Assembly (NCBI GenBank): GCA_017461605.1
Contig: JAFTXN010000007.1
Location: 186,001-250,000, forward strand
Source of the DNA: Bacteroidaceae bacterium
GTDB taxonomy: Bacteria > Bacteroidota > Bacteroidia > Bacteroidales > Bacteroidaceae
Length of the DNA: 64,000 bases
Reading direction: 5' to 3'
Shown here in pieces: positions 6,603 to 62,144 of the stretch (position 1 is its first letter; the number at the start of each line of letters is the position of its first letter). The notes under the pieces were generated by a model. The model was given only the letters and a program-made list of their open reading frames with translations, ran no database searches and was not told the origin of the DNA. The position numbers and the translations under genes are program-made.

Positions 6603-6605
6603 CAG

Positions 6606-8800: not shown

Positions 8801-8804
8801 ACTG

Positions 8805-9308: not shown

Positions 9309-9654
9309 AGTCGTAGATAATTTCATTGTCGAGTACCAAATAATCATACACACTCTCTATGTTTTTATCCGATAAATCTTGTGTGATTTTCACCTCGTTC
9401 ACCGGATTTTGGCTCACCGTGTTCATTTCGTCCGAATGCAGTCCGGCAATAACAAATGCCAAAGCGATTGTAGCAGCAATCCCCACCAAAGGCAACACAC
9501 GCCACAAAGGTCTTACGAAAGTGTTCCGACGCTTGTGCATAAGCGCTTCTGAGGCTTCGATTTGCTTCATGATGCGACCATCAAGGCTCTCAAAGTAACC
9601 ATCGGGCACTTTGAAAGGGTTGCGCTGTCTGTTGTTATTATTCGGTAAAGACAT
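9295..9654 (-). CDS. probable anti-sigma factor, single membrane helix
   Basis: This 119-residue protein has a cytoplasmic N-terminal part (about 1-50) with a PFKVPDGYFESLDGRIMKQI motif that is common in Bacteroidetes anti-sigma-like proteins. One membrane helix (about 53-70, LPLVGIAATIALAFVIAGL) and an acidic C-terminal tail outside the membrane follow. It lies 46 bases downstream of the ECF sigma gene, in the same direction. The assignment rests on that pairing and the topology, since no zinc-binding anti-sigma motif (HxxxCxxC) is present. It is predicted to hold the sigma factor at the membrane until a signal arrives. Confidence 0.65.
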   Translation of the reverse strand: MSLPNNNNRQRNPFKVPDGYFESLDGRIMKQIEASEALMHKRRNTFVRPLWRVLPLVGIAATIALAFVIAGLHSDEMNTVSQNPVNEVKITQDLSDKNIESVYDYLVLDNEIIYDYATE

Positions 9655-9700
9655 AATGTTTACGCTTTATATGGTTTAGATGTTTCAAGGTCGGTTAGGT

Positions 9701-10237: not shown

Positions 10238-10257
10238 CTGCTTGTTAATTTTGAAAT

Positions 10258-10317
10258 AAAAAGAGAGGACAAACGCAACTCCGGCTATCCGGTGTTCGCT
10301 TGACCTCCTCTTTTTTT
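10258..10317. terminator. imperfect stem-loop terminator, both strands
   Basis: A long imperfect hairpin has GAGAGGACAAACGC on one side and GTTCGCTTGACCTCCTC on the other, with CCGG/CCGG at the tip. T-runs flank it on both strands (T7 at 10310-10316 on plus; TTTTT on minus). It lies after the minus-strand sorting-domain gene (10346) and before the sigma gene. Confidence 0.6.
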
Positions 10318-10345
10318 ATATTCGTCTTATGAAAATTCTTTGAAA

Positions 10346-10663
10346 TCAGAGAATGGAGATTTTCCGTGCCACTTTTCCCACTTTCACAATGTAGCAGCCA
10401 CGTGTAAGTCCGGTATTGATAGTTTTGTCCGGACTGTCGATTTTGAAGTCAGCCACTTTCACACCTGTGATATTGTAGATTTCGAGTGTGGCCCCCTGTG
10501 CGTTTTGCACACGCACATTGTTTCCACTCACTGAAATGCGCACCTCATTTTGTTGGCTCACCTCCAAGGCTTCCAGCCACGACGGAGTTGCTTCAGCAGC
10601 CATAGCCTGTGTGCCAAAAGTGCCAAGTGACAACAACAAGATAGAGAGTATTGTTTTCTTCAT
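10346..10663 (-). CDS. tiny secreted protein made almost only of a T9SS-type sorting domain
   Basis: This 105-residue protein has a signal peptide (about 1-22, ending QAMAA). The mature part of about 80 residues carries the hallmarks of a type IX secretion or Por C-terminal domain: NNVRVQNAQGATLEIYNITGVKV, then GLTRGCYIVKVGKVARKISIL at the very end. Large cargo proteins normally carry this domain as their last 70-90 residues. Here there is essentially nothing before it. I chose the ATG at 10663 because it gives a good signal peptide and sits just after a TACTTTTG promoter box; the open frame to 10786 would run through that promoter. The function is unknown. Confidence 0.75.
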   Translation of the reverse strand: MKKTILSILLLSLGTFGTQAMAAEATPSWLEALEVSQQNEVRISVSGNNVRVQNAQGATLEIYNITGVKVADFKIDSPDKTINTGLTRGCYIVKVGKVARKISIL

Positions 10664-10680
10664 AGGCCTTTGTTTTATCG

Positions 10681-10712
10681 CAAAAGTATGCTTTTCTTTT
10701 GAAAACAACAAA
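10681..10712 (-). promoter_or_regulatory. promoter of the sorting-domain protein gene
   Basis: On the minus strand TTTG (10709-10712) and TACTTTTG (10681-10688) are separated by 20 bases, matching the Bacteroidetes -33/-7 pair. The start codon follows 18 bases after the -7 box, so the leader is very short. Confidence 0.72.
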
Positions 10713-10961
10713 TATATGTTTGCAAAAGTGCGGATTTTCAAGCTTTTTAGCACAACGAAGTGCCGCTGAAGCATGTTTTGTGTCATTGCATGCTTTACCC
10801 GTTTTTACGCAGTGCTTGCAGAAAATTCTACGAGCACTGCAAAAAAAATCTGCAGTGCTTCCGGAGAAACGGCCTCCCCGATGCGATCTTTCATCATCGG
10901 TCGGAGAATATCCACCCAAGAGATGCATAGCTTCGCTCCCCCTTCCCGCTCTGACAAGAAC

Positions 10962-11002
10962 AAAGCCGTGTCATTGCCCATCCATCGGGCATACACGGCT
11001 TT
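10962..11002 (-). terminator. terminator after the hemerythrin-LuxR gene
   Basis: Arms AAAGCCGTGT and ACACGGCTTT enclose a second, inner pair GCCC and GGGC. The hairpin lies about 25 bases past the stop of the regulator gene. The run of T after it is weak, so it may be a Rho-aided or processing structure. The rest of the 10713-10961 gap holds no gene I can support. Confidence 0.6.
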
Positions 11003-11026
11003 GGTATGTGTTATATGTCGGAGGGC

Positions 11027-11989
11027 TTAGTGCATTTTCACTTCATCGAGATGCACGATGCCTTGCGCAATGGCATAGATGGTAAGTCCGGCTACGGAGT
11101 GTATGTTGAGCTTGCGCGAAATGTTCTTCCGGTGTGTGAGCACGGTGTTGAGCGAAATGAAAAGCTTTGCAGCCGTTTCCTTGTTGGTCATACCGCGCAC
11201 CACATGTCGCAACACTTCCACCTCGCGTTCGGACAATGCTTCGGCACCGGTGGTAGCCCCCGAACGTAGCGTGTCATCGGCATCACCGCTATCGGTAACA
11301 TCCTTCAGCTGCTCCTCCAGCAACTTCACAGCCGGCACGAAAAGGTCGTTCTCCAGTGCACAGTGGGTGCGCAAATCGCCTTCACAAACAAATATATCAA
11401 ACAACACATTGTGCAGCAATTGCCCATCGGCCGGAGCTGCGTAATACTTGATAATGATGTTTTTGAATTCCTGCAATTTGTGATCGATGTCCTTGTGGCT
11501 GTCGGCAAACTGAGTGATGCAGAAGTCGGCCGGCTTTCGGCCGCTCAGCAGTTGCTTCACGTAGGTAAACACGCGTTTGTTCTCAAATTGCATGTGCCTA
11601 CGCACTTCAGCCATATAGTCATCGTAGAATTTCAGGATAAGGTAGGCCACTTCATTCTGTTCGGAGCAGTCGATAGCTTCAAGCAGTTTGCGACGAATGG
11701 CCGGCAGTTGGAACTGAAGAAAATATCTGTGCGCTTGTGCCAGGTAGGCGGTAAGCGCTTCGACCGATACCTTTTCGATATCCACGATGGCCGCTGCAGG
11801 TCCTTGCTTCATGTAGTTGGCCACTGCCAGAAAGGTAGCAGTATCCACCTTGTGGTCTTCGCAGACTTGTGCCACGGTTTTCTCGCCCACTCCCAGCGCG
11901 ATGCCAAATCGCGACATCATCTGCAGAAGATGATGGTCGTCGCTGATGATTTGACACAGGCGGTCGGAGGCTTTGTAGGGTGCAGACAT
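11027..11989 (-). CDS. hemerythrin-domain LuxR-type regulator (RIC-like fusion)
   Basis: This 320-residue protein has three parts. Residues 8-60 resemble the ScdA N-terminal domain of RIC/YtfE iron-centre repair proteins, but without the Cys-Cys pair. Residues about 75-225 are a four-helix hemerythrin-like region with ligands spaced as in RIC: H87, H132/E136, H165, H209/E213. Residues about 250-315 are a LuxR/GerE helix-turn-helix (LSEREVEVLRHVVRGM, TNKETAAKLF, NTVLTHRKNISRKL). RIC proteins carry a di-iron site that reacts with NO or oxygen, so this looks like a di-iron sensor wired to DNA binding. The ATG at 11989 is chosen; the frame is open to 12097 but the extra residues look unrelated. 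It is divergent from the iron/heme operon at 12236 and probably controls it; that is inference. Confidence 0.8.
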   Translation of the reverse strand: MSAPYKASDRLCQIISDDHHLLQMMSRFGIALGVGEKTVAQVCEDHKVDTATFLAVANYMKQGPAAAIVDIEKVSVEALTAYLAQAHRYFLQFQLPAIRRKLLEAIDCSEQNEVAYLILKFYDDYMAEVRRHMQFENKRVFTYVKQLLSGRKPADFCITQFADSHKDIDHKLQEFKNIIIKYYAAPADGQLLHNVLFDIFVCEGDLRTHCALENDLFVPAVKLLEEQLKDVTDSGDADDTLRSGATTGAEALSEREVEVLRHVVRGMTNKETAAKLFISLNTVLTHRKNISRKLNIHSVAGLTIYAIAQGIVHLDEVKMH

Positions 11990-22242: not shown

Positions 22243-22388
22243 CTATAGGACACCGACCGGATTGAAAAATGTTAAACTCTTGTTACCAATGCTTACACAA
22301 ACACTGTGCCCTATGCTCGCAGTGTTAAAAGATATTGTTAAAATGCGATTTTGCTACATCGAATAAGCAATTCCAACGAAAAGCTGAC

Positions 22389-22396
22389 TAATTTTG
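22389..22396 (+). promoter_or_regulatory. TAATTTTG -7 box for the HtrA gene
   Basis: TAATTTTG followed by CAAAC predicts a start of transcription at about 22400-22403. That puts the ATG at 22402 almost on the first base of the RNA and makes the ATG at 22432 the better start. Confidence 0.6.
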
Positions 22397-22431
22397 CAAA
22401 CATGAAAACAAATCTCAAAACATACATAAGC

Positions 22432-23931
22432 ATGAATAAGAAGACACTTGGCCTCATGGCCTTGGCTTTCTGCCTCGGACTGACACCGGCCATCTCCACC
22501 ATCGTTTCCAACAACGACGCCGACAGCACACAGACCACTCCCACCACCGAAAACACCACTCCCGGCGGCCCGGTAGACCTGAGCTATGCAGCCGAACGCG
22601 CTGTCAATTCGGTCGTGTACATCAAAGTAACCACCCACAGCCGTGTGCAACAAGCACCCTCGGGATACCGCGACCCCTTCGAAGAGTTCTTCAACGACTT
22701 CTTCGGGCACAGAGGCGGTGCTCCACAGCGTCGCTATGAGACCCCCGAGCGAAAGGGGGCCGGCAGTGGAGTAATCATCTCGACCGACGGATATATCGTC
22801 ACCAACAACCACGTGGTGGAAGGAGCCGACGAACTGCAAGTGAAACTCAACGATAATCGTGAATTTAAGGCCCGCATCATCGGAACCGACAAGAATACCG
22901 ACTTGGCCCTTATCAAGGTGGAAGCCGAAGACCTGCCCGCCATCACCATTGGCGACAGCAATAACCTCAAGTTGGGCGAATGGGTACTGGCCATCGGCAA
23001 TCCTTTCAGCCTCACGTCCACCGTTACCGCCGGTATCATCTCGGCCAAGGCACGTACGCTCGGTGCCAGTGCAAACAGCATCGAGAGCTTTATCCAAACC
23101 GATGCAGCCATCAACCCAGGAAACTCTGGCGGTGCACTTGTAAATACGCGCGGTGAGCTCATCGGTATCAATGCTATGATCTATTCGCAAACCGGATCTT
23201 ACAGCGGCTACGGCTTTGCCATCCCCACCACCATCATGCGCAAAGTTGTCGATGACCTTAAGGAATTTGGCACAGTGCAGCGCGCCATGCTTGGCGTAAC
23301 GGGCAAAGACGTCAGCACCTACTTGGACGAGCAACACGAAAAGGGTAACGAAGTGGATCTTGGTACTCTGACAGGTGTATATGTTAACGATGTGAGTCAA
23401 GACGGAGCAGCAGCACAAGGCGGACTGCAAAAGGGCGACGTCATTATTGCCATCGACGGAAACACCATTGAGAAATTCGGACAACTGCAAGAACTCATGG
23501 CCGGCCACCGTCCCGGTGACAAAGTGAAGGTAACCTATCTGCGCAACAAGAAGAAGCACACCACACAACTCACCTTGCGTAACGTGCAAGGCACGGAGGG
23601 TGTATTGGAGAGCGTCAACAGCGACAAGATGGGAGCAGCTCTGCGTCCGCTCACAGATGCCGAGAAACAACAACTTGCCCTGCGCCATGGATTGGTGGTA
23701 ACTGCCATTAGAAACGGCAAGATGAGCGAAGCCGGCATCACAAAGGGTATCATCATCATGCAAGTGAACGATCGCGAAATGCACTCCGTGGACGACTTCG
23801 ACGAAGCCGTGAGAGCTGCAAACATGAGTTCGGACCGCGTGCTTTGGATACGTGCAAAGACACAAAGCGGCATCAACCGCAGCTACACCGTAGAACTGGC
23901 AGACAAACAGGAGCAGAAAAGCAAAAAATAA
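22432..23931 (+). CDS. degP: HtrA/DegP-type periplasmic serine protease
   Basis: This 499-residue protein has a signal peptide (about 1-25). The trypsin-like domain has the full triad H127 (TNNHVVEG), D157 (NTDLALIK) and S232 (NPGNSGGAL). Two PDZ domains follow, about 265-375 (with GLQKGDVIIAIDG) and about 395-490 (GITKGIIIMQVND). This is the DegP/Do layout: a periplasmic protease-chaperone that degrades misfolded envelope proteins. A glycine- and Arg-rich loop near 90-107 matches the LA loop region of DegP. I chose the second Met cluster (22432) because the -7 promoter box sits at 22389-22396; ATG at 22402 is the alternative. Confidence 0.94.
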   Translation: MNKKTLGLMALAFCLGLTPAISTIVSNNDADSTQTTPTTENTTPGGPVDLSYAAERAVNSVVYIKVTTHSRVQQAPSGYRDPFEEFFNDFFGHRGGAPQRRYETPERKGAGSGVIISTDGYIVTNNHVVEGADELQVKLNDNREFKARIIGTDKNTDLALIKVEAEDLPAITIGDSNNLKLGEWVLAIGNPFSLTSTVTAGIISAKARTLGASANSIESFIQTDAAINPGNSGGALVNTRGELIGINAMIYSQTGSYSGYGFAIPTTIMRKVVDDLKEFGTVQRAMLGVTGKDVSTYLDEQHEKGNEVDLGTLTGVYVNDVSQDGAAAQGGLQKGDVIIAIDGNTIEKFGQLQELMAGHRPGDKVKVTYLRNKKKHTTQLTLRNVQGTEGVLESVNSDKMGAALRPLTDAEKQQLALRHGLVVTAIRNGKMSEAGITKGIIIMQVNDREMHSVDDFDEAVRAANMSSDRVLWIRAKTQSGINRSYTVELADKQEQKSKK

Positions 23932-51650: not shown

Positions 51651-52412
51651 CTAATTAATATAAGGTTTCACGGCATCAATACTCCAAGCGTAGTTTAGGT
51701 TGGCTTGCGAGCCGTCAGCAAACGAGCCAGAAGTTATACCTACGACTTCACCATATTCATTGATGAGAGCACCGCCACTGCTGCCATGATCGATGAGTGC
51801 GCTAATCTGCATAAGGAAATCGGCACGCCACTGGGAGACTTCACCTGAAGAAAAAGTGTTTTCAAGACCACGTGGGCTTCCAATAGCATAGACCTTCTCA
51901 CCGATTTTAGGTTTGTCGGATGCTATTGGAATATAGTTGGTGTTCTCGCAATCAACACGAAAGAGGATGAAATCGGAATCTTCGTTCTTCGTTATAATTT
52001 CCGCTACTTTGTACGCCGTATCATCACCGACTAGTTTAATTTGTTCCATACCTATGCCAGTACCTTTGAAAACATGGTAGTTACTTACGGCAAGACCATT
52101 GTTGTCAATAAAGAAGCCCGAGCCTTGGAACATATTTGAACCGTCACTCGTAAAAACCATGAACACTGCACTTCCATAGCGTTCGAAAATTTGTGAACCT
52201 TCAAGTTTCTCACTGGAGCGCTTGTTCACAATTTTACTCCGCCGAGAAGTTGAACGTGAAGATTTCCTATCCTGATAGTCTGCAATCGTAGTGCCCGAGC
52301 GTTCACGGTCGCGACGGTGTCCTGACTTGTGAGCGCATGAAGTAAAAAGCAATGCGGACAAAAATAGTATGACAGCACTATATTTAATTTTCTTTCTTTT
52401 CAGCATCTGCAA
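51651..52412 (-). CDS. trypsin-like serine protease lipoprotein (end of cytoskeletal/channel operon)
   Basis: This 253-residue protein has a lipoprotein signal with Cys at 26 (LLFTSC). After a basic linker (about 30-68) comes a trypsin-fold domain with the complete triad H113 (SNYHVFKG), D147 (EDSDFILF) and S212 (DHGSSGGAL). It resembles the catalytic domain of HtrA but has no PDZ. It overlaps the MotB-like gene by 29 bases. As the last gene of an envelope operon it may cleave or sense an envelope partner. An alternative start two codons in (52406) would still overlap. Confidence 0.85.
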   Translation of the reverse strand: MQMLKRKKIKYSAVILFLSALLFTSCAHKSGHRRDRERSGTTIADYQDRKSSRSTSRRSKIVNKRSSEKLEGSQIFERYGSAVFMVFTSDGSNMFQGSGFFIDNNGLAVSNYHVFKGTGIGMEQIKLVGDDTAYKVAEIITKNEDSDFILFRVDCENTNYIPIASDKPKIGEKVYAIGSPRGLENTFSSGEVSQWRADFLMQISALIDHGSSGGALINEYGEVVGITSGSFADGSQANLNYAWSIDAVKPYIN

Positions 52413-53070
52413 TAATGTTTTTGGGTATTATATGAATAACAAAGCGTTGGTTGTCTACTTCTTTGGTGCCTCTTTCGCGCATTAGAGTTGCGTCGAGCTG
52501 TTTGAAACGTTCTGTGTCCTCGCCTCCAGTGTAGCCAAAGTTATATCGGCCGTCACCACTACCCGCAATTTGTATTTCACAATTTGCGCCAAAATCAATG
52601 TGGCAAACATCTTTCCAATACTTCATAAGTGTGAGTGCGCGTTGGAAACTCCAATCGTAGTTAGCATCTGTTAGGTTCTGCGAGTTTCGCGAAGCCTGTC
52701 CTTCAATGATGAGTAGGTACTGATTACTTTCGTTTCTATCAAGAAACTCCTTAATTTCAGTTCCTGCCTGATGTAGACTTGCGGTATCTGCTTGCAGGTC
52801 TGCTAGTTGATACTTAGTTGCATTGAAGAAGCATCTAACATCAAGAACATACTTCTTATATTCAGCTTTATATGCAAAGTTTTTAGAGCGTTCTAATTCT
52901 TTTGTTGATGCTTCCACCTTTTTTATTTCTTCAAGTTGCTTTTCTGTGGCCTCCATGCGCTTGTGCAAAAGCACTATGACGAGGACAAAAAGAGTCAGCA
53001 TGATGAAGAAAAGACTCGTCATCAAGTCAGAGTAACTGGTCCAGAAAAAGGATTCTTTCTTATCAGCCAT
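52384..53070 (-). CDS. MotB/ZorB-like stator subunit with OmpA-like domain
   Basis: This 228-residue protein begins with a cytoplasmic stub and then a single membrane helix (about 13-35, SYSDLMTSLFFIMLTLFVLV). The helix carries Asp15, the position of the ion-binding Asp of MotB and ZorB. A coiled segment (about 36-70) leads to an OmpA-like peptidoglycan-binding domain (about 90-215), with LLIIEGQASRNSQNL and NYDWSFQRALTLMKYW. It lies 15 bases after the MotA-like gene and forms a channel pair with it. Zorya ZorB has the same design; the rest of this operon is different. Confidence 0.85.
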   Translation of the reverse strand: MADKKESFFWTSYSDLMTSLFFIMLTLFVLVIVLLHKRMEATEKQLEEIKKVEASTKELERSKNFAYKAEYKKYVLDVRCFFNATKYQLADLQADTASLHQAGTEIKEFLDRNESNQYLLIIEGQASRNSQNLTDANYDWSFQRALTLMKYWKDVCHIDFGANCEIQIAGSGDGRYNFGYTGGEDTERFKQLDATLMRERGTKEVDNQRFVIHIIPKNIIADAEKKEN

Positions 53071-53085
53071 ATTAACTTATCGAAT

Positions 53086-54720
53086 TTATAGATGCTGCGT
53101 ACTATGTTGATTGCTTGGAGCTTGCTGTGGGGTTTGTGGAACAGGTTGCACTTGAATACTATCAGCTTGGATTGGGACAACCATAGTCGAGTCAGCCTCA
53201 TCAGTTTTTTCCCATGTGGCTGCGGATGTCGTAGAATTTTCTGGTGCAAAACATATATTGTAAACGGTATTAGAAATGCAAGCAAGGGCAATCAAGATAA
53301 CCGATACAACAATAGTCCACTTCATCCAACCTGGCATCATTTGAGGAACAGTATAAGGAGAAAATTCACCCTTTGACGAAACCATTGTGAGTTCCTTAGC
53401 TGTGCGTGTCATTGTTCCACTCACCTGTGAAGCCAAAGTACTATTTGAGCGTTCCATACGTTCTATAAGTTTGTCTAATTTTGCAGGGATTCCTGCAATT
53501 TCAGACAACTGTTTTTGCAACATTGGGATTTGGGTTAGCTCAGCACTGAATTGAGTGCGAAGCTCGCTATTCAGTCTTTCAAAAGAATCTTTTTCATCGG
53601 CGATAATACGCTTAAACTCTTCTGCTTGCTGAACAAGTGTAGAGTTGAGTTCACCTATGTTTTGGCTGGCAGTCTCCTTTAGGGTACGCAATGCGCTTCT
53701 CAAAGCAACATCTACGTCAGCTGAATCTTTGGCAATTTCTGCCTTATGACGCATGAAGTACTGCTGTATCTCTTCTAGAACATGCAATCGGTTAGCTTCG
53801 TGCTCGAACTGAGTAGTAAATGTATGGATTGCATCAGTGTAGCCGTGAATGTTATCCAAATATTCATTGAACTGTTCTAACTTATCTGTGCATTCCTTCA
53901 GTTCTTCAAGCACTCGGACGTTAGCCTTTGCCATCTTCATCACGTCCATGTCATGCACGGCTTTGATAATGTCACCTTGGATGCGATAAGATTCGTTTAC
54001 CTCTCGTAATGCGCCACGTAGTGAGGATGTATTTTCTGCAAAGGTTCTATTGAACTTATTGAGATTCTTGACCAGACGATTTAGTGCATCAGATGTGTCA
54101 GAAGGCAACTCTGGAAGTAGTTTTGCTTGAAGCCATGCCAGAAAAGTGTTCTTACCCGATTCTCCTTGTAATTTATACCTCTTGAACAGAAGAGAAGCTA
54201 TTGTGGTAAGTAAGATACCCATGATACTGGCAAGCATAGCCCAAGCTACACCTGCAAGCAAGTCGTTTACACCTTCTGCAGCTGTACCGAAGTTACCAGA
54301 ACCAGAAGACAAAAGTGCAGTAATACTTCCTGTGGTAAGCAAGGAACTAAGACCTACGATTACACCAGCCATAGTTCCTGCAAGACCACAATACAAAGGT
54401 GTAGGGGTCAGTGTGTTGATGTCATTTTCAACAGAATCGCAGTGTCGGTCAACGGCATCTTTCAAGAGAGAAAAATCAATGACTGAACCAGAGTTGTTTT
54501 CAAGGTATTTGTTAATTGAGTCTTTGATGGATTCAAAAACTTTGTTGCCGCGCCCATAAATACCAGAGACAAATTTCGTTTCGGGATTGTGAGCAATACC
54601 CCAGGACTTTTCTTCTGCAAAGATTTTTTTGTACTCTCTCATGCGGAGTACATTCTTTATGAAAAAGAAAAACTGCAGTACGATTATAACTGCAACTATA
54701 ATTGGTACTAAAAGAGACAT
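53086..54720 (-). CDS. MotA/TolQ/ZorA-like channel subunit with long coiled tail
   Basis: This 544-residue protein has membrane helices at about 1-22, 108-129 (LYCGLAGTMAGVIVGLSSLL) and 155-179 (LLAGVAWAMLASIMGILLTT). The last two match the MotA/TolQ/ExbB core. From about 200 to 440 there is a long helical, coiled-coil-like cytoplasmic segment, followed by another membrane helix at about 467-488 and a Gln/Pro-rich tail. ZorA also has a long tail, though the extra C-terminal membrane helix here is unusual. Together with the MotB-like protein it should make a proton-driven stator. Confidence 0.85.
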   Translation of the reverse strand: MSLLVPIIVAVIIVLQFFFFIKNVLRMREYKKIFAEEKSWGIAHNPETKFVSGIYGRGNKVFESIKDSINKYLENNSGSVIDFSLLKDAVDRHCDSVENDINTLTPTPLYCGLAGTMAGVIVGLSSLLTTGSITALLSSGSGNFGTAAEGVNDLLAGVAWAMLASIMGILLTTIASLLFKRYKLQGESGKNTFLAWLQAKLLPELPSDTSDALNRLVKNLNKFNRTFAENTSSLRGALREVNESYRIQGDIIKAVHDMDVMKMAKANVRVLEELKECTDKLEQFNEYLDNIHGYTDAIHTFTTQFEHEANRLHVLEEIQQYFMRHKAEIAKDSADVDVALRSALRTLKETASQNIGELNSTLVQQAEEFKRIIADEKDSFERLNSELRTQFSAELTQIPMLQKQLSEIAGIPAKLDKLIERMERSNSTLASQVSGTMTRTAKELTMVSSKGEFSPYTVPQMMPGWMKWTIVVSVILIALACISNTVYNICFAPENSTTSAATWEKTDEADSTMVVPIQADSIQVQPVPQTPQQAPSNQHSTQHL

Positions 54721-54721
54721 T

Positions 54722-55639
54722 TTATTTCTGTAGTTTGATTTTAAGTTTTTTAGTCACTTGCCATGTTACATCATCATATTTTTCGCAAATACCAAAGTCT
54801 TCAACTTTAAAGGATGTAGCATCTTCTATTGAACCTGTATACTCCACGATTTCTTGCCACATATTTCTTGATTTAATCTTATCTAACGAAATGATGTTAA
54901 ATTCTCCTTTAGTTGCGCTTTTGAACTTAATTGAAAAAACACAACTTTCTTGGGCAGAATCAAAAATCTTCGTAAAAATGTTACCGCTATTAATGTTTGC
55001 ATACCCCATTTTGAGATATTCGGGCTCTTTGGGATGACGAGGTTGTTCTTGCCGGGAGCTAACTGGTGAATTGGACGAATTGTGAACTTCACTTAACTTA
55101 CTAACGAATTTTTCAACAGACCGTAGGCGTACATCAAGATTTTGAAGAGATGTATTTACGCTGCTTGAAACCCTATAGTTGTTTAATGCAGACTGTAACT
55201 GACTGACATCAACTTTCAGTTCAGTGATTCTTTTTGACTTATCCAAATTATTGCTAAAAATCTCATCAACATTCTCTCTGCTGACTCCTTTTCGTAATAA
55301 AGATAGGACAAGTGCGATGACTGCTACAACAAGGGATGCAAGTGTCATATAACCCCAAGTACTTTTAGGACTTTCTAATTTCTCGACTTGAGTTTTCAGC
55401 TCGGCATTCTCATTTTTAGCCTGAGTTAATGCCTGAGCCAAAGTGTCTACTTTCAGTACAAGGGCGTTCATTAATGTGTCTTGAGCCGCAATCTTGTTCT
55501 TTATCTCTTGTGAGATACCTTCTACTGTAGTTGCATTTACCTGTGTATCTTTATTTGCTTCCTTGTCCTTGAAGAAATCACATGAAGATAACATTGAAAT
55601 TGCGACAAGACATACTATGAGATTAAATAATTTGTTCAT
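54722..55639 (-). CDS. coiled-coil lipoprotein with membrane helix
   Basis: This 305-residue protein has a lipobox at 17-20 (LSSC). A coiled-coil segment spans about 40-92 and a second hydrophobic helix lies near 97-115 (YMTLASLVVAVIALVLSLL). Coiled-coil (about 130-190) and Pro/Ser-rich linkers lead to a C-terminal domain (about 205-305). Its start shares one base with the SrfB-like stop, and its stop is one base before the MotA-like start. The topology with both lipid anchor and second helix is puzzling: either the first segment is a plain signal anchor or the second is buried. I do not recognise the C-terminal domain. Confidence 0.7.
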   Translation of the reverse strand: MNKLFNLIVCLVAISMLSSCDFFKDKEANKDTQVNATTVEGISQEIKNKIAAQDTLMNALVLKVDTLAQALTQAKNENAELKTQVEKLESPKSTWGYMTLASLVVAVIALVLSLLRKGVSRENVDEIFSNNLDKSKRITELKVDVSQLQSALNNYRVSSSVNTSLQNLDVRLRSVEKFVSKLSEVHNSSNSPVSSRQEQPRHPKEPEYLKMGYANINSGNIFTKIFDSAQESCVFSIKFKSATKGEFNIISLDKIKSRNMWQEIVEYTGSIEDATSFKVEDFGICEKYDDVTWQVTKKLKIKLQK

Positions 55640-58600
55640 TAGCTTGGGTTTTCTAAATAATACTCTTGTATCTTGCTAGAAAGAGACTGGAGAACGCCTT
55701 TTATCGGATAGAATGTTATAGCATCCTCGATTTGGTTGTCCTTATTTCCAGATTCTTTAATCGAGAGTTCTATACCTTTATCAAGGTATGTTTCTAAGTC
55801 ATGTGTGCATTCTTCTTTAGCAATCTTCACGGTGACATTATCAACTCCGAAGTTATTGTCAAGATTAAATGCAGATGGAATTTCTGTTAAAGCAAATTTG
55901 AAGAAGTCTTTTACCGTCTTCACTATTTCTGCCTTATGGGTATCAGTGATGGAAGCATATGTGTCGCTCGTACTTGCCAGTTTACCTGAGGAATCGCGGA
56001 GTACAAGCGTCTCAGGCTCTTCGTCGTATGCATCAGCAGCAATTAAGCCACCCTTACATGTTGATTCCTTGGGATTAGAGCCTTGTTCCAATCCAAGAAT
56101 ATCAAGGGCAGAAGCATATTCTGTACCTAGCGCCTTATCAAAGATAACCTTTGTGTACTTGCCAAGAATCTTCGGGTCAGATGAAATAATGCTTATAATC
56201 TTACTACCATTACCGCTAAAAGCAATATGTCGCGGTGCCTTCAGACCTTTGGCTTTTATTATCTGAGCAATGTGATAAATGATGGCAGTGTAGAAGATGA
56301 TAAACACTAGCTTGAATTTGGTATCATTCTGAAGAATCTTGTTGAAGTCAATATTATTTCGAGCAAGACTCTTAGTAGCCGAGTTGTCTTTTAAAGAGAA
56401 CAGGAACGAAGCCATATTTGCTGGCTGCCCTAAATTACTATTGAAGATATTGACAAGTTCATTCAACTCTGGCTTAGACTGAAGCAGGCCGAGAATGTCA
56501 TTCTTAAACCAGTCAACAATTCCATTGTTCGGGTTGATGTCTGAGAACGAATCTTCGAACAGCGAATTAGCTGCGAACTTGAATGATGTAATGTATTCAA
56601 CTTTGCCGTTAGAAGAGAAGGCAATGTCTGTAGTACCACCACCAATATCCACATTAACGAGGTTTGTTGCGGTGGCATACCTACGGAAGTAGAATTGTAT
56701 AGGGGCAACAGATTCAGAAAGGTTTCTAGTAGAACCATCACGATTGAACAATTCTGTATATGAGTCGTTCCACGCCATACGTAACTGAGCCAAACGTCGT
56801 GGTGACATACTGTTTGGATAGAACCATGTAATCTTTGTACGAGCAAGGTTACCATTGTTGGCAATTACCTTGTTACGTATAATCATCATGATGTTCCGAA
56901 TATAGGCTTGCATAGCAGACTGGGCATTAGGCTTACTGCTCCACTTGATATTCACCATCGGTTTGGCATTATAGGCGATGCCCAACTTTTTGTTGTAGGT
57001 AATATCAAAGTTAATCAAGCCAAATGTTCTTAGCTTCTCAGTCCAGTCAGTTGATTTCGCATATGACAATGCAGTTCTAGTCGGGAAGGAGAAATCTGAA
57101 TCAGCCCCCACGACAACTGGAATGAAGTCACGAACCATTAAGTCATTCTCGTCAATCAAATCCAACGGAATCAACTTACCTTGAATCTCACGATAGGACT
57201 GTACAAAGAAAGTACTGAAGATTGCTTCAGAATCTTTGTAATTGAAAGAGTCAGAACTATTGTTGTCGGCCTTTTTAAACTCAATATGTGTGTTTGAAGT
57301 TCCCAAGTCTACAGCAAATTCATAATCTTCCAAATTCTGATGAACAAGGAAATTTGGAATAATGACATTGCTCACCCCACTTTTGTTAGAAACTCTGATG
57401 AAGTCAAAGTTGCTGTGTTGGATGGTATATGTCTCAGCTTTGAAGTCAAACAGACCCCTCTCTTTGTTTCGGCAATCGACAGGAACATCACGAAGTATTT
57501 CACCTTCACGATAGAAATCAAACCTGAACTGATTTGAGAAAGTGCTAACACAAGAAATCGTATAGATAGCATCTTCTTCATTTTGGAATTTCATACTAGG
57601 CATTACTAAGCCTGTGAAGTCAAAAGATGTCATTCCACCAGAGTTCTGCGTTTCGGAGACGTCAGACTGACGCTGTGCGTAATAGATACGTTGGTACTCA
57701 ATGTACCTAATATTCCCATTGCCTATGATAGGTATTCGAATTACAACATTGACAGACCCACCAGCAATGGCCTCCATCTCAAATGCAGGTTTTCCATCAG
57801 GCATGGTAGAATTAAGTGTTTCTATAGAGAAATACTTGAAGTAGAGTGGCTTAATTGGAAGAAGGAAAGAAGTCATCTGCTCCACATCTTTGATCTTGCC
57901 ATCGAAGAAATACTTCTTGTTTAAAGTGTGAGGAACTTTTACTATCGTATCTTCGAGGAAATCGCTAATTGTGAGATATGCGAAGGTGGATCCTTCATAT
58001 GGAAGTGTGCGGCGTTCGATATCTGCAACATTCGGTTTGTATGGTGCTTTATTTGTATTACCCCAAGTACCATTTGCATATTGTAGCCCTGCGTATTTGT
58101 TTCCTGCTTCAACAGGAAGGACAAGTGGTTTCACACCAGCTATAGTACGTTCAGGATGTATTGTAAACTCATTCTCAATATTACCAGTGGCTTTCTTCTT
58201 AAACAAAACCGTTCCCAGCACCTCAACCTGGTTACTTTGTTGATGAGACTGCACATCAATCAGAGAAAAGTCTTTGGCTGATGCTGGTGTTATTTCATTC
58301 AACTTGTTCTTGACAAGTTGATCTGTAATTGCCTTGAATGTCAGGTTCAGATAATTCTCAATCTCGGGGAAAAGATTAGAAAAGTATGGTATGGTTTTGC
58401 GAAGTGTCCACCATGCTTTGATGTAGTCAATATCTCTTTTGAAAAGTGGAACATAGTCGCCATCAAAAGGTTGATCGTTGTTCGCGAAAAAAATGTCATG
58501 TATATATTCAAGACTATTTGCTCCACTGAAGAAGAGTGTAGCTGGAGAAGTGGCACCAATGATATTTAATTCATCAGGCCCATTCATGTAGTTCAACAAA

Positions 58601-59067
58601 TAGATATTCTTAAGTTTGTCGAAGTTATAAGTCTTGGCATCGGAAACCAGATACTTCTGCAAGGCATCGGCCACATAGTAGTGGCTTACGTTTTGGTCGT
58701 TCTTCAGAGCATCAATCATTACGGACGGATCCCATGTTATGATTTCTATCTTTTCCTTGAACTTATCAATGTTGAAGAAAATCTCGCCAACGTCTAATGA
58801 ATCTGACACCATCTTATGGAATATGGTATTGCCGTCCAACTCTCTAATATCATGGGTAGCCCTACGACATACTTCTTTAAAAGCTGTCTTCACAAGGTCA
58901 ATTCTTGCGAATGGAGAAGGAATCGATGTGATTTCATTCTTGGCACTTGCGCCATCGGGATCCTCGATGGTGTCCCGGGCATTGGAGTTATATGGGAAAG
59001 CTGGATTCTCATTCCAGCCTTGGAAGGTTGTTGTGCCCTGTTTATATAATCTAAATACTTTCGACAT
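55639..59067 (-). CDS. very large actin-like (SrfB-like) ATPase
   Basis: This 1142-residue protein is mostly an unknown N-terminal region (1-580) followed by an ASKHA (actin/Hsp70) ATPase fold. The fold shows the phosphate-1 motif VDLGTSNTHIEF at 586-597, phosphate-2 motif VDIGGGTTDIAF at 806-817 and adenosine motif HIAFSGNGSKI at 947-957. All three nucleotide motifs are intact. SrfB-type virulence factors of enteric bacteria share this size and fold; identity with that family needs a profile search. It is 5 bases after the tubulin-like gene and probably acts with it. No signal peptide is present, so it is cytoplasmic. Confidence 0.8.
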   Translation of the reverse strand: MSKVFRLYKQGTTTFQGWNENPAFPYNSNARDTIEDPDGASAKNEITSIPSPFARIDLVKTAFKEVCRRATHDIRELDGNTIFHKMVSDSLDVGEIFFNIDKFKEKIEIITWDPSVMIDALKNDQNVSHYYVADALQKYLVSDAKTYNFDKLKNIYLLNYMNGPDELNIIGATSPATLFFSGANSLEYIHDIFFANNDQPFDGDYVPLFKRDIDYIKAWWTLRKTIPYFSNLFPEIENYLNLTFKAITDQLVKNKLNEITPASAKDFSLIDVQSHQQSNQVEVLGTVLFKKKATGNIENEFTIHPERTIAGVKPLVLPVEAGNKYAGLQYANGTWGNTNKAPYKPNVADIERRTLPYEGSTFAYLTISDFLEDTIVKVPHTLNKKYFFDGKIKDVEQMTSFLLPIKPLYFKYFSIETLNSTMPDGKPAFEMEAIAGGSVNVVIRIPIIGNGNIRYIEYQRIYYAQRQSDVSETQNSGGMTSFDFTGLVMPSMKFQNEEDAIYTISCVSTFSNQFRFDFYREGEILRDVPVDCRNKERGLFDFKAETYTIQHSNFDFIRVSNKSGVSNVIIPNFLVHQNLEDYEFAVDLGTSNTHIEFKKADNNSSDSFNYKDSEAIFSTFFVQSYREIQGKLIPLDLIDENDLMVRDFIPVVVGADSDFSFPTRTALSYAKSTDWTEKLRTFGLINFDITYNKKLGIAYNAKPMVNIKWSSKPNAQSAMQAYIRNIMMIIRNKVIANNGNLARTKITWFYPNSMSPRRLAQLRMAWNDSYTELFNRDGSTRNLSESVAPIQFYFRRYATATNLVNVDIGGGTTDIAFSSNGKVEYITSFKFAANSLFEDSFSDINPNNGIVDWFKNDILGLLQSKPELNELVNIFNSNLGQPANMASFLFSLKDNSATKSLARNNIDFNKILQNDTKFKLVFIIFYTAIIYHIAQIIKAKGLKAPRHIAFSGNGSKIISIISSDPKILGKYTKVIFDKALGTEYASALDILGLEQGSNPKESTCKGGLIAADAYDEEPETLVLRDSSGKLASTSDTYASITDTHKAEIVKTVKDFFKFALTEIPSAFNLDNNFGVDNVTVKIAKEECTHDLETYLDKGIELSIKESGNKDNQIEDAITFYPIKGVLQSLSSKIQEYYLENPS

Positions 59068-59072
59068 GATGA

Positions 59073-60467
59073 TTACGCATTAAATTTTTCATTAAACAAC
59101 TTTGTCATACCAAGATAGAACATTTCAAGGAACTTGTCGTTGTCTTCTTTGCTGTGACACTTTTTAACAGCAGAGTTCAAGCGGTCGGTCACCAAATCGT
59201 AATCTGATTTGATACTGACTATTCTTTTAGGTTTTATACCTGTAACTACTTCAAAGGGTTTTTCTTTTGTATTAAGATTGAAGAGGTCTAACGAACGTTT
59301 GTTTTTCTTCATTTCCCTAAGCCACTCAATGAATGACCCTGTCAGGTTCTGTAGTTCTGACATGAACGAAGAACCATACAAGCCGTTAAAATTATCATTA
59401 TTGGCATTGAAGTCTTTGGATGAATAATAATCAAACTTATGATTCAGGCAGTTTGCCATCATCATAAATTCGGTGAGCGGAGCATAAAGCTGACGTTTTT
59501 GCTTGTCATAGAACGAATCGAAAGTGACCGAACCAGAGAGGTCCTTTAGACCAAGTTCTTTGTTCGAGGTATTCGAATGTTGCTTATTGCTAAAATCAAC
59601 AATAGCCGTAGCTGCCAAGAACTCAACCAAGTGAGCATCGTTTTGCTGTGCCGAACCTCCTTCATGGTTTTCATAAGTATTTGTTACATCATCAGCAAGA
59701 AAATACAGAGCGTTGATAGAATTGTTCTTACTGATGTTGTTCTCATAATAAGCCAAGGCCGATTTGGTCTTTGATATAAAGGTGGAAGAATCTATCTCGC
59801 TTTCATCATCATTCTTCAGTTTGAAATAAGGAAGAATAGTAATAGCACCAATCTCTGCTTTGTTAATAAGGTTGTTATTTGGAAAGTTCGTGCCTGTTCG
59901 TAGAGTTTTCAACAAAAGTGGGAAACCGCTTGCACCTGTTCCACCAAATATTGAACTAATGATGAAAACTTTATCTCCTGATTCAAAATTGTTTGCGAAG
60001 TCTTGAAAGTCATTTGAGTCCACTATTTGGTTAAGAACGATACTCCCTATATTAGGGTTGCCCTTAAAACCAACATCCATAGACGATCCAAGGTTCTTTT
60101 CCGAGAAAAGCATTCTCATCATTGCCTGTGAAGACTTGTCCATGGAAGGTAGGTCGATAAACTGCTGGAATGTTTTGTCATCCGTATCGTTGATTCGAAG
60201 AGTGTAGTTCACCAATATCTGAGACAACTCCTTTCTAAAGAATGTTGATTTATTATCTTTAGTGAACGAAAGGGCAGAGTGAATAGCCCTGTAATTATTC
60301 ATAAGGGCTACAGTTCTTGTTAAGTCAGCATTTGATGCATCGGGGTCAATGATTATAGGTACGATTTCATCGGCTCCTATATTTACACCAGCCGACATCA
60401 TCATTGTGAAAGAACGTAGGACACGTGCTCCAGTCCCTCCAATTCCAAAAATATATAGTTTGGCCAT
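59073..60467 (-). CDS. tubulin/FtsZ-like GTPase
   Basis: This 464-residue protein has the tubulin-type N-terminal motif GIGGTGARVLRSF (about 8-20) and the G-box GGTGASG at 175-181 (SIFGGTGASGFPLLL), the variant of the tubulin signature GGTGTG. Later regions are less conserved. It is longer than FtsZ (about 380). It fits the tubulin-like protein family found in bacterial operons outside cell division. Both motifs are intact, so GTP binding is expected. It lies between the small membrane protein (19 bases upstream) and the SrfB-like gene (5 bases downstream). Confidence 0.82.
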   Translation of the reverse strand: MAKLYIFGIGGTGARVLRSFTMMMSAGVNIGADEIVPIIIDPDASNADLTRTVALMNNYRAIHSALSFTKDNKSTFFRKELSQILVNYTLRINDTDDKTFQQFIDLPSMDKSSQAMMRMLFSEKNLGSSMDVGFKGNPNIGSIVLNQIVDSNDFQDFANNFESGDKVFIISSIFGGTGASGFPLLLKTLRTGTNFPNNNLINKAEIGAITILPYFKLKNDDESEIDSSTFISKTKSALAYYENNISKNNSINALYFLADDVTNTYENHEGGSAQQNDAHLVEFLAATAIVDFSNKQHSNTSNKELGLKDLSGSVTFDSFYDKQKRQLYAPLTEFMMMANCLNHKFDYYSSKDFNANNDNFNGLYGSSFMSELQNLTGSFIEWLREMKKNKRSLDLFNLNTKEKPFEVVTGIKPKRIVSIKSDYDLVTDRLNSAVKKCHSKEDNDKFLEMFYLGMTKLFNEKFNA

Positions 60468-60486
60468 ATTTTGATAGATTTATGTG

Positions 60487-60945
60487 TTAAAAAGGAGCAC
60501 GTGAACAGTTGGCGCTCCTCCATTTGATGATATATGAGAATACAATGAAAGCGATAATGGCATCAATCATGTTGGTAACACCGAAAGCCAAAATGTCATC
60601 CGTATAGATGAGTAAGTCTACCATTTTACCAGTTGCCGCATCTTTCTTTACCATGAGTCCAGCATAATAGTCTTTCAAGACCCATTGCCAGCCAACAACA
60701 AAGTTTATTGCAGCATTCACGCCTAAGAAAATGAGCCAGCCCCACCAGTTGTTAAGACGTGGATGATTGATGACGTAATAGTAGCAAACAGCTACAACTA
60801 ACGAGATAGCCAACATGGTAAGGCCGATGCCAATAAACATGTTGCTTAATTGTTCTGGAGATGATTCTCCCCAAAGATACTCTGCCAGCTCAATTCCAAA
60901 GAAGTCTTCAAGCCAGCAGTAGATACTGCCAAAGAATTCACTCAT
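60487..60945 (-). CDS. small membrane protein of unknown function
   Basis: This 152-residue protein has three hydrophobic helices at about 37-60, 66-88 and 112-142. Between them are aromatic-rich loops (EDFFGIELAEYLWGESS and GWQWVLKDYYAGLM). I do not recognise a family. It is 11 bases after the VWA-like gene and 19 bases before the tubulin-like gene, so it is part of the operon. It may anchor the tubulin-like or actin-like protein at the membrane. Confidence 0.7.
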   Translation of the reverse strand: MSEFFGSIYCWLEDFFGIELAEYLWGESSPEQLSNMFIGIGLTMLAISLVVAVCYYYVINHPRLNNWWGWLIFLGVNAAINFVVGWQWVLKDYYAGLMVKKDAATGKMVDLLIYTDDILAFGVTNMIDAIIAFIVFSYIIKWRSANCSRAPF

Positions 60946-60956
60946 AATGTATAAAG

Positions 60957-62144
60957 TTATTTGTTTTTAAGTTCAAAAGAAACGGAGCCGTATGTTGTTG
61001 AGTTTTTGTAGGCTTCAGCGACACCCTTTATGAGGGCCATTAGACCTGTAGTCCTATCAAGATTGTCTTTGACATTAGCACCTGTGGCATCATCGGAGTT
61101 TGAAACCCATGTAGCCAGATGAGGATAGGAGAATGTCAACGTCTCAGACCTTAAGGTCTCTGGATTTTCTATTTCAAGTGTGACAACATGGCTATAACGG
61201 TTGGAAGCATCGGTTATCTCGTTAACAGATGCAACTGTAACCTGTGCTGGGTTCGCAGACTTGTATAGAGCCGTGTTCTTACACAAGGCGTCGCTTTGTA
61301 AAGAGCCTCTCAAATTAATAAGCACTTCAACATTGATTTTCCCGGAATGATTTGTGACATATGTAGATTTGGTAATATCAAAAGGTATTTTTTGCGATGC
61401 TGCGTAGGCACTATATTCTTTGATACCTCCAATAATGTTCTCTACGGGAACTTTCTTATTGAATTCAGCCAAATATCGTTGGTCACCAATAATCCAAATG
61501 TAGTAAGGTCGCTTCACGTCTTTGAGAAGTTCTCTGTTATGTCCACAATACCAATACCCTTCAAATTTGGATTCAAGTTTGATTATTTCTACCCCTAAGC
61601 CTGGGTTCGCAGAAAGAGCTTCATTAAAAGTATTCTTGATAGACACCTGGCAATTACCGAAGAAATCTATTGCATTTTCAGGTATATCAAGTATACAATC
61701 AGATACAAAAACAGAAACAGTTTGTTTGCCATTGGCTCTTATGATTTTCTCAAAAATATCACGAAGATCTGTATTACTTCGGTCTCCGCCAGCCTTGGCG
61801 AATGATTGTGGAGTAAGGTCTTTAATGTAAGAATTTAGCTCTCCATTGTATGGAATAACTTTAGAATTGATATAGTAAAGTGAGCATGAGGTGGTTAATC
61901 GCTTTAGGTCGCTTATATAATCGAAAACCGCATCTTTAAGATTGGAACCAGCGCACATATATGCATCCATACTGCCGGAATTTTCTACATAAACTTTGAG
62001 TTCAACGGAATCTTTTATTTCTCCCGGAGATGGAATTTGTTTCCATATTAACCTAATCTTACTACCTCCACCAACGCATGTAGAGATTACTGCAATAGTA
62101 ATGACTACGCTGATAACAATCGGAATGATGAGTTTTTTTTTCAT
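60957..62144 (-). CDS. membrane-anchored VWA-like protein (first gene of the operon)
   Basis: This 395-residue protein has an N-terminal membrane anchor (about 5-23, ending in TCVGG). A VWA-like domain follows, with LKVYVENSGSMDAYM (52-63) where the MIDAS motif is expected; here Asp is replaced by Glu-Asn (ENSGS), so metal binding may be altered. Later VFVSDCILDIPE corresponds to the strand that carries the TDG loop. It is the first gene of the eight-gene minus-strand operon; a structured RNA region (62204-62386) lies 60 bases upstream. VWA proteins often pair with ATPases or channels as assembly factors. The family is not one I can name. Confidence 0.72.
   Translation of the reverse strand: MKKKLIIPIVISVVITIAVISTCVGGGSKIRLIWKQIPSPGEIKDSVELKVYVENSGSMDAYMCAGSNLKDAVFDYISDLKRLTTSCSLYYINSKVIPYNGELNSYIKDLTPQSFAKAGGDRSNTDLRDIFEKIIRANGKQTVSVFVSDCILDIPENAIDFFGNCQVSIKNTFNEALSANPGLGVEIIKLESKFEGYWYCGHNRELLKDVKRPYYIWIIGDQRYLAEFNKKVPVENIIGGIKEYSAYAASQKIPFDITKSTYVTNHSGKINVEVLINLRGSLQSDALCKNTALYKSANPAQVTVASVNEITDASNRYSHVVTLEIENPETLRSETLTFSYPHLATWVSNSDDATGANVKDNLDRTTGLMALIKGVAEAYKNSTTYGSVSFELKNK

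What the first reader, a model, noticed from the sequence alone, without database searches (positions are those of the whole stretch)
51651..62144. Eight-gene operon joining actin-like, tubulin-like, MotA/MotB-like and VWA-like proteins
Seen: eight minus-strand genes with gaps from 19 bases down to overlaps, encoding a VWA-like anchor, a small membrane protein, a tubulin-like GTPase (GGTGASG), a 1142-residue actin-like ATPase with all three nucleotide motifs, a lipoprotein, a ZorA-like channel with long tail, a ZorB-like subunit with membrane Asp15 and OmpA domain, and a trypsin-like lipoprotein. Known: MotA/MotB-type pairs drive flagella, Tol/Exb systems and the Zorya anti-phage system; SrfB-like proteins occur in enteric virulence loci. 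Inference: an envelope-spanning, ion-driven machine with two cytoskeletal NTPases. No Zorya effector (ZorC, ZorD, ZorE) is present, and I know of no described system with this set. It could serve defence, envelope stress or predation.
Basis: partly seen in the sequence, partly recalled or inferred. Interest (0 to 1): 0.92.

Follow-up and report, generated by a model that had tools for sequence, protein, structure and literature searches.

The report
Bacterial tubulin-actin envelope motor operon
A group of gut and environmental bacteria carries a compact gene set that couples relatives of both tubulin and actin to a cell-envelope system, often with an ion-driven motor and exported enzymes; no described system with this set was found, and it may be a defence or envelope-remodelling machine.

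Summary
In detail: eight minus-strand genes at 51651-62144. VWA, small membrane protein, tubulin-like and actin-like genes occur in that order in 35 of 42 loci compared. In 395 genomes of the phylum, all 9 with a strong actin-like match (own genome included) have the tubulin-like gene beside it. The fifth gene carries a newly defined C-terminal domain, fused to the actin in one relative; another relative fuses tubulin and actin. MotA/MotB is optional: 20 of 35 loci. The pair is Zorya-like, but no ZorC, ZorD or ZorE is among the eight proteins. The tubulin is divergent from canonical FtsZl1/Tubulin_2, whose 8 loci show no actin match, although one distant member passes the Tubulin_2 cut-off. 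Tail genes are swappable, apparently exported proteases and nucleases. Best reading: a mobile trans-envelope machine with two cytoskeletal-type NTPases and periplasmic hydrolase output, perhaps defensive. Function is untested; flanks show no clear defence-island signal. SrfB is not supported.

The parts
60957..62144 (-). VWA-type lipoprotein, first gene of the operon; signal/lipobox Cys23 and ExSGSM MIDAS-like motif
   Evidence: ORF; Cys23 in 28 of 28 aligned homologues; profile-profile match to Bat-type VWA, 87%, E 3.8e-6; no Pfam or PDB hit
60487..60945 (-). Small membrane protein, three predicted TM helices, C-terminal tail ending ...SANCSRAPF
   Evidence: alignment; hydropathy; tail motif S..[CASNT]..[TVAISK]P[FI] in 23 of 35 homologues, at most 1 in each of 1000 shuffles
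59073..60467 (-). Tubulin/FtsZ-superfamily GTPase-like protein (464 aa), T1 GGTGxR and T4 FGGTGASG
   Evidence: PF00091 E 2.8e-5, 12 of 12 homologues; T1 36 of 36, T4 32 of 36
55639..59067 (-). Large actin/ASKHA-superfamily ATPase-like protein (1142 aa); DLGTSNTH aa 587-594, DIGGGTTD aa 807-814, SGNGSK aa 951-956
54722..55639 (-). Trans-membrane adaptor (called BTA here): lipobox/signal, coiled coil, TM 97-115, conserved about 100-aa C-terminal domain
   Evidence: alignment; leave-one-out profile recovers 22 of 25 at E <= 1e-3, window at 4e-8; TM
53086..54720 (-). MotA/ZorA-like motor subunit with long coiled coil and extra C-terminal TM 468-486
52384..53070 (-). MotB/ZorB-like subunit: single TM with Asp15, OmpA-type peptidoglycan-binding domain
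51651..52412 (-). Trypsin-like (HtrA-type, no PDZ seen) lipoprotein; His, Asp and GSSGG motifs present
   Evidence: PF13365 E 3.6e-22, Do-family E 3.2e-25 but 88.9 bits against a cut-off of 416; PADLOC RT-Protease_XI E 5.4e-19; motifs read; lipobox

Best explanation
A mobile, accessory trans-envelope machine. SHOWN by sequence: a constant block VWA - small membrane protein - tubulin-like - actin-like, nearly always followed by a trans-membrane adaptor (BTA), kept together as one operon; in 20 of 35 loci MotA/MotB is added, and in many of these a lipoprotein or membrane-anchored hydrolase follows. INFERRED: the tubulin-like GTPase and actin-like ATPase form one cytoplasmic complex (they are one protein in one relative), much as FtsZ and FtsA work as a pair in cell division (recalled). 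The 3-TM protein would hold it at the inner membrane, perhaps through its conserved tail. The BTA protein would connect the actin to the periplasm (its domain is fused to the actin in another relative, which puts that domain in the cytoplasm). The VWA lipoprotein is the periplasmic sensor or ligand-binding part. The nucleotide state of the complex is coupled to the 5:2-type MotAB motor, which grips peptidoglycan and uses the ion gradient. Output is at or beyond the inner membrane, through proteases and nucleases that differ between lineages. Most likely role: a conflict or immune system that senses damage or contact at the envelope, analogous to Zorya but with hydrolytic output in the periplasm.
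For: Conserved order in 35 of 42 loci. TUB within about 200 bases of ACT in 9 of 9 genomes with a strong ACT hit among 395, own genome included. Pairwise distances of VWA, TUB, ACT, MOTA and MOTB correlate at r 0.86-0.97, 0 of 1000 permutations as high in each of 10 comparisons. Natural TUB-ACT fusion of 1615 aa (TUB part 2e-11, ACT part 9e-12), followed by a MotA match (1e-8) and a MotB-like ORF recognised by eye. BTA domain fused to the ACT C-terminus in L044 (6.7e-15). MotB-ZorB profile match and membrane Asp in 19 of 20. Swappable tail genes: trypsin-like, SNase, gag-type aspartyl protease, Endonuclease_NS, Exo_endo_phos, YkuD. Patchy presence: 3 of 58 genomes of the genus, with ACT 34-36% identical while LemA is 64-65% identical in the same two genomes; 12 of 101 in the family. 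One decaying copy (L065). Single flanking proteins match PADLOC models such as REase_II, RtcR, HEC-01A and AriA.
Against: No phage-defence phenotype is known. Flanks show no clear defence-island signal: the only PADLOC families hit by more than one of 140 flanking proteins are SNc+LTD (3) and mad3 (2); in 92 control proteins, type I specificity reaches 3 (capped lists, one-genus control). MotAB is missing in 15 of 35 loci (elsewhere in those genomes was not searched). Many tails have no recognised hydrolase, and the SNase tails come mostly from related Flavobacteriia, so they are not all independent. The fusion protein L066 has no Pfam match at E <= 0.01, so its two halves rest on the home-made profiles and visible motifs. 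Not found in phage records. No structure could be predicted, so folds, polymerisation and contacts are not tested. The distance correlations lack a housekeeping-gene control.
Confidence: 0.42

Rival explanations
1. Membrane or envelope remodelling (vesicle formation, shape or division-related) machine, as predicted for FtsZ-like 1 operons; the hydrolases only tailor the envelope.
For: Makarova and Koonin 2010 predict this for tubulin-like + VWA + OmpA operons. Peptidoglycan-facing partners beside relatives: OmpA domains (L063, L064), L,D-transpeptidase and an SH3 hit below cut-off (L060). Both NTPase classes are cytoskeletal, and FtsZ-FtsA is a known tubulin-actin pair in division (recalled). 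One distant relative (G382) passes the Tubulin_2 cut-off.
Against: Patchy, low-identity distribution within one genus is unusual for a cell-shape system; tails with nucleases (SNase, Endonuclease_NS, Exo_endo_phos) have no obvious role in remodelling; the window's tubulin is under the FtsZl1 cut-off and 0 of 7 genomes behind related loci are over it.
Confidence: 0.25
2. Envelope scavenging, uptake or secretion apparatus: MotAB-powered export or surface display of the proteases and nucleases for feeding or predation.
For: Many tail products look like lipoproteins, membrane-anchored or secreted hydrolases; MotAB-type motors power secretion and uptake elsewhere (PMC12204202, passages).
Against: No outer-membrane channel or transporter was recognised among the constant genes; 15 of 35 loci lack the motor and several tails show no recognised hydrolase.
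Confidence: 0.17
3. A genuine Zorya variant (ZorAB plus replaced effectors).
For: ZorB match E 5.6e-12, 8vvn_B E 2.5e-11; MotA-like with long coiled coil.
Against: No ZorC, ZorD or ZorE among the eight proteins; NCBIfam ZorB1 25.5 bits against a cut-off of 400; the operon exists without MotAB in 15 of 35 loci.
Confidence: 0.06
4. DNA segregation or organelle-positioning cytoskeleton (ParM/TubZ/MamK-like).
For: Tubulin- and actin-superfamily members together.
Against: None of the constant genes was recognised as DNA-binding (no search for centromere-like repeats was made); most constant partners are envelope proteins; one hit in 72,556 plasmid records.
Confidence: 0.03

Closest known systems
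FtsZ-like 1 (Tubulin_2, PF13809) / VWA / OmpA predicted membrane-remodelling operons (Makarova and Koonin 2010, PMC2875224)
   Same: Tubulin-superfamily protein next to VWA and OmpA-type genes; membrane-associated; patchy distribution
   Different: Unbroken TUB ORFs here are 463-585 aa and the window's is below the PF13809 cut-off; canonical FtsZl1 (E < 1e-30) in the same 395 genomes has 977-1208-aa ORFs and occurs in 8 other genomes; those 8 loci (3 on short contigs) show no ACT, SMP, MOTA or MOTB match. Boundary not clean: the G382 tubulin, beside an ACT, scores 28.4 against 27
FtsZ-FtsA of the divisome (recalled)
   Same: A tubulin-superfamily protein working with an actin-superfamily protein at the inner membrane
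   Different: Accessory operon; ACT is more than twice the size of FtsA; partners are VWA, adaptor, MotAB and hydrolases, not the division genes
Zorya anti-phage system (ZorAB + ZorCD or ZorE)
   Same: MotA/MotB-type pair, long coiled-coil MotA tail, membrane Asp, peptidoglycan-binding domain
   Different: No ZorC, ZorD or ZorE among the eight proteins; MotAB optional; core is a tubulin/actin pair with VWA; the hydrolases carry lipoprotein or other membrane signals, so they probably lie outside the cytoplasm
vWA force transducers with TolQR-like motors (PMC12204202, passages seen)
   Same: VWA proteins beside ion-driven 5:2-type motor genes, also reported from Bacteroidetes
   Different: In the passages seen the VWA is an inner-membrane force transducer and no tubulin- or actin-like partner is described; here the VWA looks like a lipoprotein and sits beside two NTPases
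SrfABC operon
   Different: PF07520 matches only 1 of 10 homologues at E 0.049 and nothing in the own genome (a search whose controls did not ring)

Membership tests
FtsZ/tubulin superfamily (TUB) | GTP-binding T1 and T4 glycine loops in a tubulin GTPase domain | tested here: met
   PF00091 in 12 of 12 at E <= 1 (window 24.9 bits, under the cut-off of 33); T1 36 of 36, T4 32 of 36
FtsZ-like 1 / Tubulin_2 | PF13809 above the curated cut-off | tested here: not met
   Window 21.3 bits against 27; 0 of 7 genomes behind related loci over cut-off. Exception: the distant G382 copy, 28.4
FtsZ-like 1 / Tubulin_2 | About 1000-aa protein with coiled-coil and helical C-terminal part | tested here: not met
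   Unbroken TUB ORFs 463-585 aa versus 977-1208 aa; coiled coil not computed
Actin/ASKHA superfamily (ACT) | Phosphate-1 and phosphate-2 motifs in order | tested here: met
   34 and 36 of 36 by regular expression; profile reaches FtsA/MreB-sized ORFs
Actin/ASKHA superfamily (ACT) | Actin fold in three dimensions and polymerisation | not testable with these tools
   Structure prediction switched off
Zorya | ZorA and ZorB | tested here: inconclusive
   ZorB-like profile match strong but far under the NCBIfam equivalog cut-off; ZorA match weak and partly coiled coil
Zorya | ZorC, ZorD or ZorE effector in the operon | tested here: not met
   No PADLOC hit to them in the eight proteins at E <= 1
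MotA/TolQ/ExbB - MotB motor | TM acidic residue in the B subunit and conserved Thr/Ser in the A-subunit helices (role recalled) | tested here: met
   Asp 19 of 20 (L044 has Gly); T116 17 of 17, S165 16 of 17
VWA domain | MIDAS motif DxSxS...T...D in a VWA fold | tested here: inconclusive
   ExSxS replaces DxSxS in most of 22 aligned; 87% profile-profile match; no Pfam hit
SrfB | PF07520 above cut-off | tested here: not met
   (1 of 10 at E 0.049); uninformative because no control rang

The most novel reading that the evidence does not exclude
The first modular bacterial immune (or conflict) machine built on a paired tubulin-actin engine: a cytoplasmic TUB-ACT NTPase complex, docked by a tail-bearing membrane anchor and a trans-membrane adaptor, reads a periplasmic VWA sensor and, where present, gates a peptidoglycan-gripping ion motor, releasing or activating swappable periplasmic proteases and nucleases against incoming phage DNA or attackers.
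Probability: 0.28. Interest if true: 0.96.

Novelty: categorically new. Interest (0 to 1): 0.82.

Why it matters
Tubulin- and actin-type NTPases are known to work as a pair in bacteria in cell division (FtsZ with FtsA, recalled). A mobile operon that keeps a divergent tubulin and a very large divergent actin together, fuses them in one lineage, and wires them to a VWA lipoprotein, often a MotAB-type motor, and swappable hydrolases would be a new type of cellular machine. It makes the question of what orphan FtsZ-like proteins do directly testable in named hosts that carry it (Bacteroides luti, Christiangramia, Maribacter, Hymenobacter, Pedobacter).

Tried and rejected
SrfB membership: Pfam on 10 homologues gives no support; the own-genome search is uninformative because no control rang. 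Canonical FtsZl1 membership: not met by the window protein, with the G382 exception. Zorya membership: rejected for lack of effectors and optional MotAB. Defence-island enrichment: PADLOC on 140 of 348 flanking ORFs (nearest two a side, 120-650 aa, within 5 kb) against 92 of 115 listed control ORFs around LemA in eleven genus relatives (23 left out, mainly LemA, its neighbour and repeats) gave no clear enrichment; only 25 of 80 and 25 of 37 families were shown, and the control is one region of one genus. Pfam on the same sets: SNase 5 of 140 flanks, all five being the tail genes named in the report; in the control it is not among the families with two or more members, so at most 1 of 92. Clean empty site: LemA and its neighbour are kept in 11 of 11 regions of genus relatives, but gyrA, the gene on the other side of the operon in the window, gave no match in those regions, so no simple insertion site can be shown. 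Phage records: none; plasmid records: one 1.77-Mb replicon. Bacillota: 1 of 199 genomes, the one already known.

Rows set aside before counts: L058 (same genome as L045), L065 (decayed), L046 and L061 (contig ends), L062-L064 (distant subtype) for the MotAB tally of 35; L023/L024 (two contigs of one genome), L027 (ACT fragment), L049 and L066 are not. The BTA alignment came from an eye-made list of genes after ACT; its leave-one-out test misses L018, L020 and L048, and near relatives were left in.
Full report
OBSERVATION. The eight ORFs lie on the minus strand at the stated coordinates, with gaps of 11, 19, 5, -1, 1, 15 and -29 bases.

WHAT EACH PROTEIN IS. The third protein is a divergent tubulin: PF00091 E 2.8e-5, PF13809 E 1.8e-4, both under the cut-offs; 12 of 12 homologues match PF00091 at E <= 1. 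Phosphate-1 is found in 34 and phosphate-2 in 36 of 36. The VWA assignment, invisible to Pfam and to the PDB search, is supported by a profile-profile match to 14 Bat-type VWA domains of relatives (87%, E 3.8e-6, one comparison) and an ExSGSM...T/S...D pattern. MotB is ZorB-like over nearly its whole length. MotA is ZorA-like in its TM core; much of its score elsewhere is generic coiled coil. The last gene is a trypsin-like lipoprotein; it also matches PADLOC RT-Protease_XI.

THE SYSTEM IS REAL AND WIDE. In the same 395 genomes of the window's phylum, strong TUB matches (E < 1e-100) occur in 10 and strong ACT matches (E < 1e-80) in 9, the own genome included; in all 9 the two matches lie within about 200 bases on the same strand; the tenth TUB is a decayed copy without ACT. 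Three weaker TUB genomes (G284, G382, G407) also have an ACT match next to TUB. Among 42 loci examined, 35 hold VWA, small membrane protein, TUB and ACT in that order (two of them, L045 and L058, are one genome); the others are truncated, decayed or distant, or (L029, L048) have an unrecognised small ORF in the second place. The adaptor is a separate gene in 32 and fused to ACT in 1 of the 35 loci with a readable downstream side (the profile was built from most of them).

NEW FEATURES FOUND HERE. (b) In Bacteroides luti (L044) the domain sits at the ACT C-terminus, residues 1071-1176; if ACT is cytoplasmic, so is the domain, and the separate protein is a trans-membrane adaptor (inference). (c) In G315 (L066) TUB and ACT parts are in one 1615-residue protein (TUB aa 118-204, ACT aa 977-1313), followed by a lipoprotein with a VWA-like look, a MotA match (1e-8) and a MotB-like ORF recognised by eye. 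Pfam finds nothing in the fusion at E <= 0.01; its GGTG, GGTGAS, DFGTS and DLGGGT motifs are visible in the sequence. (d) The small membrane protein has a C-terminal motif S..[CASNT]..[TVAISK]P[FI] in 23 of 35 homologues, at most 1 in any of 1000 shuffles, a candidate docking peptide (inference). (e) MotA/MotB follows in 20 of 35 loci and is absent from the operon in 15; on the ACT tree this needs 6 changes, at least 3 forced by well-supported branches, against 11.7 in shuffles. (f) Genes after MotB or the adaptor, where recognised, are mostly hydrolases with export signals: trypsin-like (window, L019, L028, L031, L032, L033 by family profile; L123 by Pfam), SNase (L031, L032, L033, L036; convergent in L055), gag-type aspartyl protease (L036, L054; a fragment in L065 by eye), Endonuclease_NS with an N-terminal hydrophobic stretch (L025), Exo_endo_phos (L036), L,D-transpeptidase (L060). 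A lipobox pattern flags 4 of the 6 profile-found trypsin-like genes and L123; the other two have FSC at that place, and the remaining export signals were read by eye. L031, L033 and L036 are Flavobacteriaceae, so these cases are not independent. Several MotAB-less loci (L035, L040, L047, L048, L114) instead have proteins that look like zinc-ribbon proteins (by eye); L054 and L059 have WG-repeat-type proteins (L054 tested). In L037, L038 and L057 a lipoprotein of 732-755 aa follows (an S9 peptidase in L037); it may be an ordinary neighbour. L020, L026, L039, L041, L043, L044, L045 and L056 have no recognised hydrolase in the tail.

INHERITANCE. ACT is present in 3 of 58 genomes of the genus and 12 of 101 of the family, own genome included. 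The two other carriers in the genus are only 34-36% identical to the window ACT, whereas their LemA proteins are 64-65% identical; the closest ACT (40-41%) is in another genus. This points to an accessory system with horizontal exchange. Distances among VWA, TUB, ACT, MOTA and MOTB correlate at r 0.86-0.97, none of 1000 permutations as high; there was no housekeeping control.

RELATION TO KNOWN SYSTEMS. Makarova and Koonin 2010 (PMC2875224; text parts 1-3 of 5 and passages) proposed that FtsZ-like 1 proteins with VWA, GTPases, kinases and OmpA proteins form a membrane-remodelling system; MotA, MotB and SrfB do not occur in the main text and no actin partner appears in the passages seen; the additional files with the family lists were not seen. 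Canonical FtsZl1 was found at E < 1e-30 in 8 of the same 395 genomes, none of them a strong TUB genome, as 977-1208-aa ORFs; those 8 loci show no ACT, SMP, MOTA or MOTB match, though L115, L118 and L122 are short contigs. Against a clean border, a ninth genome over the Tubulin_2 cut-off (G382, 28.4 against 27) is one whose tubulin sits beside an ACT. A later tubulin survey (PMC9871819, passages) sets Tubulin_2 proteins aside as FtsZ-like. FtsZ-FtsA is the known bacterial tubulin-actin pair (recalled). Zorya (PMC11890865, passages) shares the MotAB part: ion-channel Asp, peptidoglycan binding, long ZorA tail. vWA force transducers near TolQ-like motors (PMC12204202, passages) are a further partial parallel. 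Searches for this gene set found no other description, but only openly licensed papers and no preprints are held.

MECHANISM AND ROLE. Shown: gene set, order, fusions, motifs, co-inheritance, modularity. Inferred: TUB and ACT act as one complex at the inner membrane; the adaptor and small membrane protein tie it there; VWA senses in the periplasm; MotAB, where present, couples to the ion gradient and the wall; hydrolases are the output. A constant core with swappable hydrolases and a patchy distribution is what conflict systems look like, which is why I lean to defence; but flanks are not clearly defence islands and nothing has been assayed. Membrane remodelling and hydrolase display remain live alternatives.

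VERDICT. A real tubulin-actin envelope system, undescribed within the searches named; I rate it categorically new as a gene set, with function open.

Noticed in passing
L066 548-5395: Single 1615-aa ORF with a tubulin-like N-terminal part and an actin-like C-terminal part; a MotA match and a MotB-like ORF follow.
   Followed up: partly
L044 9878-13411: ACT with the adaptor's C-terminal domain fused at its end; the MotB of this locus has Gly in place of the membrane Asp.
   Followed up: partly
L062 2171-4062: Distant TUB-ACT subtype followed by three genes that look like TerD (2855-3421 tested; 3496-4062 was in the flank set, where one TerD match appears).
   Followed up: partly
L063 (G382) 368-1954: Tubulin beside an ACT that just passes the Tubulin_2 cut-off (28.4 against 27), so the border between this family and FtsZl1 is not clean.
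   Followed up: partly
L063 7016-7825 and L064 14529-15197: OmpA-family proteins beside distant TUB-ACT pairs; the L064 one looks MotB-like (Asp in its N-terminal TM).
   Followed up: partly
L065 (G487) 5924-11413: Decaying copy: TUB interrupted, ACT not found, MOTA and MOTB fragments remain.
   Followed up: no
L031 14680-16448 and L036 14568-16314: The MotA-like gene appears as two ORFs (a short membrane part and a longer one); whether this is natural or a sequence error was not examined.
   Followed up: no
L120 and L122: Canonical FtsZl1 genes next to proteins that look like VWA-type secreted proteins, a separate system from the one studied here.
   Followed up: no
window 22351-23931: A second trypsin-family gene (526 aa, plus strand) outside the operon, probably a DegP-type protease.
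   Followed up: no
window 744-1064: A VWA_2 match (G000:C4:186744-187064) of a Bat-type cluster; two more lie just left of the window, one of them reaching window base 29.
   Followed up: no
L025 16280-19998: Neighbours that look like a DNA methyltransferase and a restriction enzyme next to the operon; one REase_II match occurs in the flank scan, not traced to its row.
   Followed up: partly
L114 (NC_022111.1): Record listed as a plasmid is 1.77 Mb, probably a second chromosome of Prevotella sp. oral taxon 299; it carries the MotAB-less form.
   Followed up: no
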